This document shows positions 5,995 to 11,088 of a DNA stretch of 13,021 nucleotides, one piece after another. The notes under the pieces were generated by a model, which searched no databases, had not been told where the DNA came from, and saw only the letters and a program-made list of their open reading frames with translations. Location: the NCBI GenBank assembly GCA_012520575.1, contig JAAYOB010000019.1, positions 1 to 13,021 of the forward strand. The letters are read 5' to 3'. Both the position numbers and the translations under genes were made by a program. Position 1 is the stretch's first letter; each line of letters starts with the position of its first letter. This DNA comes from Candidatus Stramentimicrobium fermentans. Its GTDB lineage: Bacteria; Atribacterota; Phoenicimicrobiia; Phoenicimicrobiales; Stramentimicrobiaceae.

Positions 5995-6570
5995 ATGAGT
6001 AACATAAATAGTAAAAAAATATTATTGCAGATACTATTAGTCTTATTCTGTGTGCTGATTGTAACAGGAACTTCTTTTGCAGGAGAAGAAAACCCACCGG
6101 TTCTAATAACCTCCATTGGACAAAGTCCGGATGGCAGGATGATTAATATCCTGGCACCCCGATTAGAGGTTTCGGCAGCCTTCGAGCAGTTAGCTTCCCC
6201 TGAAATTGTAAAAAACTTCAAAATAGTAATTGCGGTAGTTGGAGGCAGTTCTAAAGGGTTGGGTGCTGCGGGAATAGATAAAGATGAAGAATTAGCCAGA
6301 GCAAAGGCTTTGATTGAGGAAGTCAAAGCTCAGGAAATCCCTTTTTTAGTCATGCATGTAGGTGGGGAAGCAAGAAGAGGTGCTCTTTCTGATGCTTTTT
6401 TAGATGAGGTGGTGCCCTATGCTGACCATCTCATCATTGTAGAATCGGGTAATCCGGATGATTATTTTACTAAAATGAGTCAGGAGTATAAAATTCCATT
6501 AGAGAGTGTAGAAAAGATTGCTGACACCGGTGAACTGTTCAAAGCTTTTGTGAAAGAACATTTAGAGTAA
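5995..6570 (+). CDS. Secreted DUF6305-like protein of unknown function
   Basis: A 191-aa exported protein. The first 29 residues form a classical signal peptide: positive start (SKK), hydrophobic core ILLQILLVLFCVLIV, and cleavage site SFA before GEE. The mature part, about 160 residues, looks like a compact alpha/beta domain with alternating strands (PPVLITSIGQS, FKIVIAVVGGSSKGLG, IPFLVMHVGGEARRG, ADHLIIVESG) and helices. The layout recalls a small Rossmann-like fold, and GGSSKGLGAAG (78-88) is a glycine-rich loop. From memory it resembles the uncharacterised DUF6305 family; this was not searched. The ATG follows AAGGAGG (5981-5987) at good spacing. It converges on the hydrolase-permease operon, so a shared pathway, perhaps as a solute-binding or accessory protein, is inference only. 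Confidence 0.8.
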   Translation: MSNINSKKILLQILLVLFCVLIVTGTSFAGEENPPVLITSIGQSPDGRMINILAPRLEVSAAFEQLASPEIVKNFKIVIAVVGGSSKGLGAAGIDKDEELARAKALIEEVKAQEIPFLVMHVGGEARRGALSDAFLDEVVPYADHLIIVESGNPDDYFTKMSQEYKIPLESVEKIADTGELFKAFVKEHLE

Positions 6571-6677: not shown

Positions 6678-7805
6678 CTATAGGGAAGGCAGCAGATAGT
6701 TCCCATACCCCTGTTCCATCAACTCATAATAATCCGGTACTCCATGGTATACCACAGCCTGTTCCGGCCATAGCATATTCATATTTTCAACTAGCATCTT
6801 GGTAGCAGTCAGATGTCTTCCAACCCTCTCCTCGATAGGATGACCATTCTCATCATAAGGAACGTACAATCTCCCCAACTCAGCAGCTTTCACATACATC
6901 TTATCCTTACCCGTTAAAACTAAGGCTTCATCGGTTTTTCCTCTTATTCTTCCTTGACTGGCATTTGCTGTTTCCATCAGAATTGCCAAGGTATCACTAT
7001 AATCACCCCATTCGCGATGGGTTAAGCCCCGAAAAGATGGCGGGGATATTTCCAAGCTATAGTCTAAATCTTCCATCTGTAAATCCAAAACAGCAATGCT
7101 AGCTAAATCTATTGCTCTTTCGTGAGCTACAATAGCATTAATAACAGGGTATTCCGGTGATGCTTCGTGTAAATCAATTGATAAGTCAGAGGCTTCTTGT
7201 CTGATAACTTCCATAATTCCATAACATATCTGTTCAGTATAGTTTCCTTCAGGATCCCCGGGATATCCCCGATTAAGGTTTCTGGTTTCAGAACCGGAGA
7301 GAGATTGTCCAAATTGATTAATATAAATATCCGGGTCAGGCCATTGATGTATAGGGTTAGTAGCACGTGAGCCATAACGGAATACTCTTACCCCTCCCCC
7401 GGCTGTTTCAAAATGGATCTTACGGGGCGAAGCTTCCTGCGGGTCATTATGCGAAAAACCGCTGAGATTGGCTTGTGGTATTACAATAATTCTGCCTTGA
7501 GTTACTACGGCATTCTCAATTAATAAGACAGCCGAAAGCAAAGAGGATGGCTCATTAGGATGGGTGCCGCCCAATACCATAACCGTTCCTCCCGGTTCCC
7601 CGCTTTCTAAAAAGTAAATAGTGGTATCACAATACTCCCCTTTTAGTTTGGGGAAGTAATCGCTCAGCCGGGCAGTTCTGGTTACACTTGGGCCCGGGAT
7701 AATTAAGTCAGGTTTCCATTGGTCGACAAATTCCAAGCCGGCTGCTACTATAACAAAGGCAGCGAAGATTAATAAAAAGATAGCTATTTTTTCATTTTTT
7801 TTCAT
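6678..7805 (-). CDS. AstE/AspA-like (M14-type) zinc hydrolase with membrane anchor
   Basis: A zinc-dependent deacylase/carboxypeptidase-like enzyme of the succinylglutamate desuccinylase/aspartoacylase family. Numbered from ATG 7805 (375 aa), the zinc ligands are H82 and E85 in GGTHPNEP (79-86) and H213 in IDLHEASP. RNLNRGYPG (175-183) supplies the substrate carboxylate-binding arginines, and E278 in LMETAN is the likely catalytic glutamate. Residues about 7-24 form one hydrophobic helix after KKNEK, acting as a signal peptide or anchor that would place the enzyme outside the cytoplasm. Classical AstE and AspA are cytoplasmic, so this location is notable. AAGAGGGT lies about seven bases before the ATG; a TTG at 7823 overlaps it and is unlikely. 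It is the last gene of the transpeptidase-permease operon and ends at a terminator. The substrate is not predictable; an N-acyl or gamma-glutamyl amino acid is plausible. Confidence 0.85.
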   Translation of the reverse strand: MKKNEKIAIFLLIFAAFVIVAAGLEFVDQWKPDLIIPGPSVTRTARLSDYFPKLKGEYCDTTIYFLESGEPGGTVMVLGGTHPNEPSSLLSAVLLIENAVVTQGRIIVIPQANLSGFSHNDPQEASPRKIHFETAGGGVRVFRYGSRATNPIHQWPDPDIYINQFGQSLSGSETRNLNRGYPGDPEGNYTEQICYGIMEVIRQEASDLSIDLHEASPEYPVINAIVAHERAIDLASIAVLDLQMEDLDYSLEISPPSFRGLTHREWGDYSDTLAILMETANASQGRIRGKTDEALVLTGKDKMYVKAAELGRLYVPYDENGHPIEERVGRHLTATKMLVENMNMLWPEQAVVYHGVPDYYELMEQGYGNYLLPSL

Positions 7806-7847: not shown

Positions 7848-8000
7848 TTATTTTATCATAAACAGTCTCAGCACAAAAGGGATAATTACAAAGACAGAGG
7901 TTAGCTGATTCCAAATATCTTCTTCTTTAAACATATCTAATATAACTAAGGTTGTAAAAAATAAGATGATTAAGCGGTAGGTTAAAGTAATAATAAACAT
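7848..8000 (-). CDS. 50-aa two-helix membrane microprotein
   Basis: A short reading frame fills the gap between the permease and hydrolase genes. It starts at ATG 8000, 24 bp after the permease stop, and ends at TAA 7848, 42 bp before the hydrolase ATG. GGGAG and AGAAGG lie just upstream of the start. The peptide begins MFIITLTYRLIILFF and has two hydrophobic stretches, residues 2-22 and about 34-50, separated by an acidic turn (DMFKEEDIWNQ, 22-32), so it should be a helical hairpin. I recognise no family. DctQ, the usual small partner of DctM, is about 160 aa with four helices, so this is not an ordinary DctQ. It could be a small accessory subunit of the permease. Its fit into the operon supports it as real, but the length leaves doubt. 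Confidence 0.6.
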   Translation of the reverse strand: MFIITLTYRLIILFFTTLVILDMFKEEDIWNQLTSVFVIIPFVLRLFMIK

Positions 8001-8024
8001 CCTTCTTTCTCCCTTTTCAGCAAA

Positions 8025-9302
8025 TTATAGCAATATTTTAGCCAGAGCATTGGCGAAAATCATAATTACTATGCTCCAAACCGCAGTAACGATTGCCGGT
8101 AACACACAATATTTTAAAACTTTAAAATAATTTTTCTCACCTACAATCTGCGCTGCAAATATACCTGCAAGCGCGGTTGGAGGCATTAAGTCTCCTAAAG
8201 CGGCTAATTGTGAAAGCGCAGCTACAGTAATTACCGGGTTGCTCTCCAGTAAAGCCAGTGCAAAAGGTACTCCCAAGACTGAAGCTGAGCCATAGGCAGA
8301 TACGGCACCAAACAGCGGTATACTGAGCGCTATCCCTAAATATAAGAGATACGGCGGTAAACTCAAACAATTAATTACAATATAGCCCCTAACCCCGGTT
8401 AGAGTCATAACCTGAATAAACATACCTACGCCCATCAGAATTCCTAAAACGGGTAAGGCGTCATGGACCGCTTCCTGGGAAATCTTCAGGAAATTGAACT
8501 TCTTCCCGGAAAATATTCCTACAATAGCAGCTAATAGAAAGTAGACCGGCATTCCCAGGGTGGGAAACAATTTTGGTAAAAAGGCTTCTCTTACCATAAA
8601 AACCACTAGAACAATAGTAGGTAAAAATAATCTTATCCCAAAATCTGCCAGGTATGAATCGGGCAGATTGTCCTTTATCTTCTCAAAATTAAAAACTTTC
8701 AGATATTTTCTGCTTAGAAAAAGACTGGTAGCAATAATCAAAGGAACAGTAAGTACTAATAAGGGTAAAGTAAAACCGATATAGGGTAAATCGATTCCTC
8801 CCCCGATAATTAAGGCATTAACATTAACAGGTGGAGCCGCCTCACCAAAGACGGCAGCCATTGCAACCACCGCTGCCGTTATTTCTTTCGGTAAACCCAT
8901 ATAGATTAATACCGGAGATACCAGAACGCCCGCAGTTAAAACAGCAGCGGTTGAGGAACCGGTAATCATGCCGGGAAAAACAACTATGAACGATAGACCA
9001 ACAATCAATAAGGCCGGTTTTGAATAGTATTTTTCAATCAGCCAACGGGTTATGGTATCCATCATTCCATTGTATTGCACCACTTTCATAAAGATCATGG
9101 CAGTAGCAATTACTAAAATAGTATTGAGATAATTAAAAGCACCCTCTATAAGATGCCGTATAGGAACACCAAAACCTGCTACTAAACAACCGGAAATGGC
9201 AGAAATCGCCATGGCTATCCCCACCGGTAGTTTAAATTTAAAACAGCAAACGGCAAATATTCCTACCATTACTACAAAATAGAGTAATTCAATGCTTAAC
9301 AA
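8025..9302 (-). CDS. TRAP-type large permease subunit (DctM-like)
   Basis: A 425-aa integral membrane protein with about 11-12 hydrophobic segments, the usual size for a DctM permease of the ion transporter superfamily. It shows the expected twofold internal repeat. The first half has TGSSTAA (114-120) and EAAPPVNVNAL (154-164); the second has SAYGSASVLG (335-344) and GDLMPPTALAG (370-380). These paired small-residue and PP hairpins form the substrate and sodium sites in characterised relatives. It would import a carboxylate or amino-acid-derived substrate across the inner membrane. No DctP binding protein or normal DctQ subunit is encoded nearby. The start is TTG 9302, chosen because GGGGGAGG lies eight bases upstream. 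It follows the transpeptidase gene after an unusual hairpin and precedes the microprotein. Confidence 0.85.
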   Translation of the reverse strand: MLSIELLYFVVMVGIFAVCCFKFKLPVGIAMAISAISGCLVAGFGVPIRHLIEGAFNYLNTILVIATAMIFMKVVQYNGMMDTITRWLIEKYYSKPALLIVGLSFIVVFPGMITGSSTAAVLTAGVLVSPVLIYMGLPKEITAAVVAMAAVFGEAAPPVNVNALIIGGGIDLPYIGFTLPLLVLTVPLIIATSLFLSRKYLKVFNFEKIKDNLPDSYLADFGIRLFLPTIVLVVFMVREAFLPKLFPTLGMPVYFLLAAIVGIFSGKKFNFLKISQEAVHDALPVLGILMGVGMFIQVMTLTGVRGYIVINCLSLPPYLLYLGIALSIPLFGAVSAYGSASVLGVPFALALLESNPVITVAALSQLAALGDLMPPTALAGIFAAQIVGEKNYFKVLKYCVLPAIVTAVWSIVIMIFANALAKILL

Positions 9303-9387: not shown

Positions 9388-11088
9388 CTAATAACCGATA
9401 GCTATACCATCACGTCTTGAATCACCACCGCCGAAGAGAACACCATCTACCATCATTATGCCTTGGGCTCCGCCGAAATAAAGGTCATGAGCGCCTCTTA
9501 TTTCTACTGTATTCCCCAATAGTGTTAGTGCTTCCACTGTCAACGCAGGAATTCGGCTTTCCACATAAATAGGCCTAGGTTCGCCACCGGAAGAAAAACC
9601 ATGCATTCTTGGTGCTTCAATGGCCTCATCCATCCCCATTCCAAAATCGATAACATCGGAGATAATCTGCGCCATAGCAGTGAAAATTCTGGTTGCACCG
9701 GGTGAACCTAACACCATAAAGACTTCACCGTCTTTTTCCAGAATAGTAGGAGACATGCTGGATAAGGGTGTTTTGCCGGGTTCAGGGGCATTGGGAGATG
9801 CCGGATTAGTAGAAAAGTCATCCATCTCATTATTCATAATAATCCCGACACCGGGAACAATTACTCCTGACCCAAAAAAGTAGTTGATAGTTTGACTTAG
9901 GGCAACGGCATTACCCTCTGCATCCATTACCGAAATATGGGTGGTGCTTTCATGCTCAAAGATACCCGGTTCTCCGGCTTCAATTTTCATTCTTGGGTTA
10001 GTCACGTCAATCTGGTCAGCCAAAAATTTCCCATACCCTTTAGAGGTCAGCCCCTTTAGAGGTATATCCGTAGCAAAAATAGGATCAGCCATATATTTTG
10101 CTCTATCGGCAAAGACCAGCTTCATGGCTTCATTTAAAACTGAAATATGGGTGGGTCCTAAATAATTCATACCGGCAATATCAAAGTTTTCCATGATGTT
10201 CAAAATCTGAATTAAATGTGTACCGCCTGAACTGGGTGGAGGCATAGAATAAATATCATACCCTCTATAACTTCCCGTTACCGGTTCATGTCGGTACAGT
10301 TTGTAGTTCTTCAGATCTTCCAGGGTCATAATGCCGCCGGCTGCCTGTACCGCATCAACAATCTTCTGACCCAGCTCTCCGCCATACAGATAATCGATTC
10401 CTTTATCCATTATCTCTCTATAAGTTGCGGCAAGATCTTTCTGTACCAGCATATCACCGGTTTCCAGTGGCAGACCATCTTTGAGATAGGCAATGGCAAA
10501 GGGATCATTCCAATTAACTAACTTATCGTAATTATTCTTAATCATATCACTGAAAGTTTCAGTAATTTCAAAACCATTTTCCATGTAGAGCACGGCAGGG
10601 GTCATTACATCCTTTAAGCTCATTGTGCCGAATTCATCAAGAGCGGTCTTTAAGCCCATCAAAGTACCGGGAACCGCAACTGCTTTTCCGCCTTCTACAG
10701 TCCATTTTTCTGCTTTAGCCTGTTCAGAATCATACATATCCTTGGTCGCAGCACCGGGGGCACGCTCTCTGTAATCCAATACAACAATCTCACCGGTCTC
10801 TGCAAAACGAATGACCATGAAGCCTCCGCCGCCGATACCGGATGCATTCGGTTCTACCGCATTCAAGGCAAAGGCAGTAGCGATAGCCGCATCAATGGCA
10901 TTGCCGCCCTTTTTTAATATTTCCACACCGGCCTCAGCTGCTAATGGATGGGCAGCTGCTACCATACCATGTGCAGCAATAGCATCCTGCGGTGCATGCC
11001 TATCTTGAGCAATAACGGCTAATGAAGAAACCAAAACGATTATCAATACTGAACAAAAGATGGTAATTCTTTTAAATTTTAATTTCAT
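9388..11088 (-). CDS. ggt: Gamma-glutamyltranspeptidase (secreted, autoprocessing)
   Basis: An Ntn-hydrolase precursor of 566 aa that cleaves itself into large and small subunits and hydrolyses or transfers gamma-glutamyl groups from glutathione and similar compounds. Residues 1-27 form a signal peptide (core ITIFCSVLIIVLVSSLAV, cleavage near IAQ). R109 in RERAP matches the glutamate-binding arginine. T382 in ESTTHISV is the nucleophile and the new N terminus of the small subunit. N402, E421 and D424 (NNEMDDF) and PLSSMSPT (441-448) line the pocket; E421 replaces the glutamine of E. coli. The lid between MDDFS and PLSSM is about ten residues shorter than in E. coli. The oxyanion-hole motif reads GSPGA instead of GSPGG. 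AAAGGAA lies six bases before the ATG. It is the first sure gene of the operon with the permease and hydrolase. Confidence 0.95.
   Translation of the reverse strand: MKLKFKRITIFCSVLIIVLVSSLAVIAQDRHAPQDAIAAHGMVAAAHPLAAEAGVEILKKGGNAIDAAIATAFALNAVEPNASGIGGGGFMVIRFAETGEIVVLDYRERAPGAATKDMYDSEQAKAEKWTVEGGKAVAVPGTLMGLKTALDEFGTMSLKDVMTPAVLYMENGFEITETFSDMIKNNYDKLVNWNDPFAIAYLKDGLPLETGDMLVQKDLAATYREIMDKGIDYLYGGELGQKIVDAVQAAGGIMTLEDLKNYKLYRHEPVTGSYRGYDIYSMPPPSSGGTHLIQILNIMENFDIAGMNYLGPTHISVLNEAMKLVFADRAKYMADPIFATDIPLKGLTSKGYGKFLADQIDVTNPRMKIEAGEPGIFEHESTTHISVMDAEGNAVALSQTINYFFGSGVIVPGVGIIMNNEMDDFSTNPASPNAPEPGKTPLSSMSPTILEKDGEVFMVLGSPGATRIFTAMAQIISDVIDFGMGMDEAIEAPRMHGFSSGGEPRPIYVESRIPALTVEALTLLGNTVEIRGAHDLYFGGAQGIMMVDGVLFGGGDSRRDGIAIGY

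What the first reader, a model, noticed from the sequence alone, without database searches (positions are those of the whole stretch)
7848..8000. Unlisted 50-aa membrane hairpin protein inside a transporter-hydrolase operon
A short frame with a Shine-Dalgarno and tight spacing (24 and 42 bp) fits exactly between the DctM-like permease and the AstE/AspA-like hydrolase. It encodes two hydrophobic helices joined by an acidic turn. DctM permeases normally need a DctQ partner of about 160 aa and a DctP binding protein, and neither is here. The microprotein may be a minimal partner or regulator of an orphan permease. The frame and spacing are seen; the function is inference.
Basis: partly seen in the sequence, partly recalled or inferred. 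Interest (0 to 1): 0.65.

Follow-up and report, generated by a model that had tools for sequence, protein, structure and literature searches.

The report
Tiny membrane partner of a transporter-hydrolase pair
A 50-residue, two-helix membrane protein that databases leave unnamed is a real gene, found in every intact copy we saw of a three-gene set with a transporter and an outward-facing hydrolase, often beside genes for poly-gamma-glutamate, so it is probably a small working part of that transport system.

Summary
ORF 7848-8000(-) is a real gene. Its Atribacterota homologues (70-82% identical) show dN/dS of about 0.1 and an intact frame. A profile of the family finds it in at least ten phyla, always between a DctM-like permease and a membrane-anchored AstE/AspA-like hydrolase. 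Of 124 distinct copies, 120 have both partners on the same strand; the other 4 lie at contig ends. In 436 genomes from three samples, permease and miniprotein occur together in 67, neither occurs in 368, and one has only a deletion-fused permease stub. Y8, P41, L44, R45 and K50 are nearly invariant. Pfam and NCBIfam have no family for it; RefSeq calls a Cetobacterium copy 'hypothetical protein'. The miniprotein is not DctQ by size, helix number or profile. Best reading: an obligate small membrane subunit of a permease-hydrolase module that trims gamma-glutamyl material outside the cell and imports the product. Co-occurrence, order, selection and topology are shown or computed; physical contact, substrate and transport direction are inferred.

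The parts
7848..8000 (-). miniprotein gene, 50 aa, two-TM hairpin (family of 47-52 aa)
   Evidence: ORF; homologues in the same gap in 79/79 judgeable loci; dN/dS about 0.1; profile A3
8009..8013 (-). Shine-Dalgarno GGGAG, 8 nt before the ATG
   Evidence: sequence
7938..7997 (-). TM helix 1 (residues 2-21), with invariant Tyr8
   Evidence: hydropathy and conservation; helix in the model
7854..7901 (-). TM helix 2 (residues 34-49) with the motif I-P-[LF]-x-L-R-x-[LF]-x-[IV]-K
   Evidence: conservation; helix in the model
8025..9302 (-). DctM-like (IT-superfamily) permease, 425 aa
   Evidence: Pfam DctM PF06808, 33.7 bits against cut-off 23.8; predicted fold matches ArsB, NaDC, VcINDY and TRAP M, Z 18-23
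6678..7805 (-). AstE/AspA-like zinc hydrolase with N-terminal membrane anchor (ATG 7805; alternative TTG 7823)
   Evidence: PF24827; HxxE...H invariant in A5; predicted fold close to Csd4/M14, Z 21.6
9388..11088 (-). gamma-glutamyltransferase with signal peptide, first gene of the cluster
   Evidence: TIGR00066, 537 bits; GGT near 62 of 80 triads
5995..6570 (+). DUF6305 protein with N-terminal anchor, a regular neighbour of the triad
   Evidence: PF19823; 51 of 80 loci; Rossmann-like model, pLDDT 94

Best explanation
The 50-aa protein is an obligate small membrane subunit of a three-part permease-miniprotein-hydrolase module. The hydrolase and GGT, both facing outward, cleave gamma-glutamyl material (poly-gamma-glutamate or a related gamma-glutamyl peptide) at the cell surface. 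The DctM-like elevator permease takes up the released anionic product. The miniprotein, an N-in/C-in helical hairpin, packs against the permease scaffold, and may also hold the hydrolase's anchor helix next to it. Shown or computed: the gene is real, under purifying selection, always in the order permease-miniprotein-hydrolase, and present or absent together with the permease. Inferred: physical contact, the stabilising or docking role, the substrate and the direction of transport.
For: Co-occurrence: 61 relatives, 130 Synergistota and 245 Clostridia give 67 both, 368 neither, 0 miniprotein alone, 1 permease stub (G179); Fisher p about 7e-79 without correction for relatedness. Copy numbers agree genome by genome, up to five sets. 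120 of 124 distinct copies are flanked by both partners on one strand, the rest at contig ends. Median spacing is 15 and 13 nt, as in translationally coupled subunits. TRAP-fused paralogues of the permease lack it. Invariant Tyr and Arg, near-invariant Pro, Gln, Glu and Lys. Positive-inside charges +1.05/+0.22/+1.99 point to N-in/C-in, the topology reported for SiaQ (PMC9971032). Partial distance correlation ties it more to the permease (0.44) than to the hydrolase (0.21), in 97% of bootstraps. Setting: GGT in 62 loci, PgsB in 32, PgsW-type in 27, PgsC in 23; annotated order GGT-DUF6305-permease-hypothetical-hydrolase-pgsB-pgsC-pgsW in Cetobacterium somerae. PghP, a known gamma-PGA hydrolase, is a carboxypeptidase-A-like zinc enzyme (PMC4497714), the fold class of this hydrolase.
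Against: No contact is shown: model coordinates could not be read, and the read-through single-chain model imposes an artificial linker. If the permease is C-out like SiaM, that linker conflicts with an N-in miniprotein. In L073 and L085 a gene is inserted between permease and miniprotein while miniprotein and hydrolase stay adjacent, which favours the hydrolase as the closer partner. Related IT carriers (VcINDY, ArsB) work without such a subunit. No substrate data.
Confidence: 0.58

Rival explanations
1. It is mainly a partner of the hydrolase: a membrane chaperone, anchor or export helper for the AstE/AspA-like enzyme; the permease is only a metabolic neighbour.
For: When a gene is inserted (L073, L085) or the gap is long (L069, L111), it lies upstream of the miniprotein, which stays next to the hydrolase. 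Full-length hydrolases pair with it 1:1.
Against: The hydrolase has its own N-terminal anchor. Short AstE2 hydrolases have no such partner. Evolutionary distances track the permease more.
Confidence: 0.18
2. It is a CapE/PgsE-like small subunit of the poly-gamma-glutamate synthase encoded in the same cluster; CapE is 47 aa, the commonest length here.
For: Same size class, and PgsB/PgsC lie in the same operon in many loci; CapE of 47 aa is needed for polyglutamate capsule (reference cited in PMC4497714).
Against: It follows the permease and not the synthase: genomes with five triads have one PgsB; G005 and G022 have the triad without a PgsB hit, and G009, G016, G050 and G052 have PgsB without the triad. 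It always sits between permease and hydrolase, never beside PgsC. Sequence comparison with PgsE was not done.
Confidence: 0.08
3. It regulates the permease under particular conditions, like AcrZ or MgtS, rather than being a fixed subunit.
For: Small membrane proteins that tune transporters are well known (PMC7267776, PMC10710835, found); a histidine kinase/response regulator pair lies near some loci.
Against: It is never lost from intact modules over ten phyla, always in the same operon position at stoichiometric spacing; regulators of this kind are usually encoded apart and patchily kept (general knowledge).
Confidence: 0.12
4. The frame is a leader or translational-coupling element whose peptide does not matter.
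For: Short, and tightly spaced between two genes.
Against: dN/dS about 0.1 and invariant residues over deep divergence, with DNA freely variable.
Confidence: 0.01

Closest known systems
TRAP transporter small subunit DctQ/SiaQ (PF04290)
   Same: Small membrane partner encoded beside a DctM-fold permease; predicted N-in/C-in, as for SiaQ
   Different: Two helices and 47-52 aa against four helices and about 160 aa; no profile similarity; encoded after the permease; no DctP
TRAP large subunit DctM and DASS/ArsB carriers (IT superfamily)
   Same: The permease has this predicted fold
   Different: Distant sequence (33.7 bits to DctM); partners are a miniprotein and a hydrolase
CapE/PgsE of the poly-gamma-glutamate synthase
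   Same: Size, and frequent presence in a pgs cluster
   Different: Tracks permease and hydrolase rather than PgsB/PgsC
Small partners of secondary transporters (SSS small subunits such as YjcH with ActP; KdpF; AcrZ)
   Same: The general idea of a tiny TM subunit in the operon of, or bound to, a transporter (recalled, not tested)
   Different: Other transporter families; no shared profile in Pfam or NCBIfam

Membership tests
DctQ (PF04290) | about 130-position four-TM domain recognised by the Pfam profile | tested here: not met
   no DctQ hit for 15 members; hhalign against 24 DctQ, probability 0.3; two TM, 47-52 aa
DctQ (PF04290) | N-in/C-in small subunit bound to the M scaffold | tested here: inconclusive
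   N-in/C-in by charge; binding not testable here
TRAP transporter (DctPQM) | large permease of the DctM family | tested here: met
   PF06808, 33.7 bits over cut-off 23.8; fold match to SiaM and IseQM
TRAP transporter (DctPQM) | DctP solute-binding protein and DctQ encoded with the permease | tested here: not met
   no DctP-type or DctQ-type cluster recognised among the recurrent neighbours in 80 loci; DctQ genes of this genome lie on other contigs
CapE/PgsE | about 47-55 aa membrane peptide in a pgs/cap operon | tested here: met
   47-52 aa; PgsB within the fetched flanks in 32 of 80 loci
CapE/PgsE | occurs with the PgsBC synthase | tested here: not met
   five triads to one PgsB; triad without PgsB and PgsB without triad both seen
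CapE/PgsE | sequence similarity to CapE or PgsE | not tested
   no PgsE record was fetched
AstE/AspA (PF24827), for the neighbouring hydrolase | HxxE...H zinc site | tested here: met
   H88, E91 and H219 invariant in 12 diverse members

The most novel reading that the evidence does not exclude
An unrecognised tripartite transporter type that parallels TRAP: a DctM-fold permease, a 47-52 aa hairpin in place of DctQ, and a membrane-anchored hydrolase in place of the solute-binding protein, so that an enzyme and not a binding protein feeds the carrier with gamma-glutamyl products.
Probability: 0.3. Interest if true: 0.85.

Novelty: new variant of a known kind. Interest (0 to 1): 0.62.

Why it matters
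This miniprotein family sits in cultured anaerobes (Clostridium, Cetobacterium, Fusobacterium, Acetomicrobium, Pyramidobacter) and in many uncultured phyla, yet no model in Pfam or NCBIfam recognises it. It marks a module that links gamma-glutamyl cleavage outside the cell to a carrier, next to PgsB/PgsC genes whose role in anaerobes is little studied. It gives a concrete test of how small a carrier's accessory subunit can be, and a profile (A3) that annotators could use at once.

Tried and rejected
Pfam and NCBIfam for the miniprotein: no hit above cut-off; VirB3 at E 0.16 is chance. Solved-structure sequence search with the permease and miniprotein profiles: nothing. DctQ homology by hhalign: none. 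Natural fusions: 'open frames' of 224-268 aa around some copies were seen, and the one checked was an unrelated upstream frame (L182); no fusion found. Apparent exceptions without the miniprotein (L073, L085, L108, G214, G212, G202) proved to be insertions or contig ends. Structural matches of the miniprotein alone were not sought. Literature searches gave no paper on this gene order.

Full report
WHAT WAS CHECKED. The frame at 7848-8000(-) is as described: ATG at 8000, TAA at 7850-7848, 50 residues, a GGGAG 8 nt upstream, 24 bp after the permease stop and 42 bp before the hydrolase ATG at 7805. The genes on this strand are, in order of transcription, a gamma-glutamyltransferase (9388-11088), the DctM-like permease (8025-9302), the miniprotein, and the AstE/AspA-like hydrolase.

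IS IT A GENE. In near relatives (permease 85-90% identical) the same gap holds a 48-50 aa homologue that is 70-82% identical. Synonymous changes are close to saturated while protein change is low: dN/dS is 0.05-0.18 where it can be computed, and pN/pS is 0.24 in this frame against 0.65 and 2.08 in the shifted frames. A scan of one genome per bacterial and archaeal species with the permease alignment returned 80 loci at 49-90% permease identity. In 77 the profile finds the miniprotein directly after the permease, and in 2 more after an inserted gene; the last is cut by the contig end. Record titles name Atribacteria, Bacillota, Synergistota, Fusobacteriota, Aminicenantes, Calditrichota/KSB1, Melioribacteraceae, Spirochaetota, Bipolaricaulota, SAR324 and Dethiosulfatarculus.

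HOW STRICT IS THE LINK. Whole genomes were searched separately for miniprotein and permease. 61 genomes around the window: 13 with both (one copy cut by a contig end), 48 with neither. 130 Synergistota: 52 with both, 77 with neither, and one (G179) with a permease stub only. 245 Clostridia: 2 with both, 243 with neither; there not every first-look candidate was scored. Copy numbers match genome by genome, up to five sets per genome. In G179 a deletion joins permease residues up to about 69 in frame to hydrolase residue about 86 and removes the miniprotein with most of the permease; this is a remnant or an assembly error. Apparent mismatches in G202, G212 and G214 are contig ends. Of 124 distinct miniprotein sequences in the loci held, 120 have permease upstream and hydrolase downstream on the same strand, and the other 4 touch contig ends. 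Fisher's p of 7e-79 ignores relatedness; the independent argument is the recurrence over ten phyla and between diverged paralogous sets in one genome (L173, L183).

WHAT IT LOOKS LIKE. The family is 47-52 aa in the main group and up to 60 in distant sets. Tyr8 and Arg45 are invariant in the main group; Pro41, Leu44, Lys50, Glu26 and Gln32 (numbered on this copy) are over 94% conserved. Both halves are strongly hydrophobic. Net charge is +1.05 before, +0.22 in and +1.99 after the hairpin turn, so N-in/C-in by the positive-inside rule. No coordinates were available, and the artificial linker could force a wrong side of the membrane, so no contact is claimed.

THE PARTNERS. The permease passes the DctM cut-off weakly. 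Its modelled fold aligns with ArsB (Z 23.0), NaS1 and NaDC3, TRAP M subunits (SiaM, Z 20.3; IseQM, Z 20.3) and VcINDY. The hydrolase domain aligns with Csd4 (Z 21.6) and M14 carboxypeptidases, keeps HxxE...H and has an N-terminal hydrophobic anchor.

THE SETTING. Neighbour clustering over the 80 loci gives GGT in 62, DUF6305 in 51, PgsB (TIGR04012) in 32, the poly-gamma-glutamate system protein PgsW (TIGR04332) in 27, PgsC (TIGR04011) in 23, a second, shorter AstE-type hydrolase in 14, and a kinase/regulator pair in about 10. Flanks are limited to 5 kb, so these are lower bounds. In the Cetobacterium somerae plasmid p1 the annotated order is ggt, DUF6305, TRAP large permease, hypothetical protein (WP_023050537.1, the miniprotein), succinylglutamate desuccinylase, pgsB, pgsC, pgsW (translation). 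In the window's own genome PgsB lies on another contig. Among the 61 relatives 11 of the 13 triad genomes have PgsB; in Synergistota all 17 genomes with a PgsB-like hit have the triad. PghP, a phage gamma-PGA hydrolase, is a carboxypeptidase-A-like zinc enzyme (PMC4497714), and polyglutamate production is on record for Fusobacterium nucleatum (title in the reference list of PMC4497714).

WHAT IT MOST LIKELY DOES. The evidence fits a fixed part of a permease-hydrolase module that handles gamma-glutamyl material. SiaQ in TRAP transporters is thought to extend the scaffold of the elevator so that it works as a monomer (PMC9971032); the miniprotein may do the same with two helices, or seat the hydrolase next to the carrier. 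Distance matrices of 114 triads tie the miniprotein more to the permease (partial r 0.44) than to the hydrolase (0.21; 97% of bootstraps), a weak hint. Insertions in L073 and L085 separate it from the permease and not from the hydrolase, a hint the other way.

WHAT IT IS NOT. It is not DctQ. It is unlikely to be a CapE/PgsE equivalent, because it follows permease and hydrolase and not PgsB: five sets to one PgsB in G138, G145 and G161, and sets without PgsB. It is not a leader peptide.

LIMITS. No expression, binding or transport data; direction of transport and substrate are inferred; many genomes are metagenome-assembled; the literature search covers open-access papers only.

Noticed in passing
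window 5995-6570; 51 of 80 loci (cluster 3): DUF6305 is a regular neighbour of the triad, usually between GGT and permease. Its model (pLDDT 94) is a Rossmann-like alpha/beta fold behind an N-terminal anchor, with conserved GGSSKGLGAAG and MHxGGxxRRGxLSD motifs and no clear structural relative (best Z about 10).
   Followed up: partly
L257 (G179:C11:45511-46545): Permease residues up to about 69 are joined in frame to the hydrolase from residue about 86, with the miniprotein gone; GGT lies downstream. A deletion remnant or an assembly error.
   Followed up: partly
Synergistota genomes such as G161:C21:13284-14102: A divergent PgsB-like ligase (E 1e-31 to 1e-38, below the NCBIfam cut-off) occurs only in genomes with the triad; perhaps a PgsB subfamily that current models miss.
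   Followed up: no
L036, L040, L042, L045, L089, L109 and others: A second, shorter AstE/AspA-type hydrolase lies directly between the triad and pgsB in about 14 loci, without a miniprotein of its own.
   Followed up: no
L073 3336; L085 2626-4009: In KSB1/Calditrichota one gene is inserted between permease and miniprotein; the miniprotein stays next to the hydrolase.
   Followed up: partly
L027 (G001:C70:1562-2287): A decayed permease copy with 13 stops in a genome of the window's own genus; no miniprotein hit beside it.
   Followed up: no
L033 (JAQVEM010000072.1): A contig filed under an Actinomycetota MAG is 88% identical to the Atribacterota permease and has the same gene order; probably a binning error.
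   Followed up: no
L196 1472-2535: In Cetobacterium somerae plasmid p1 two genes annotated as chromate transporters and a kinase/regulator pair sit between two GGT genes upstream of the triad.
   Followed up: no
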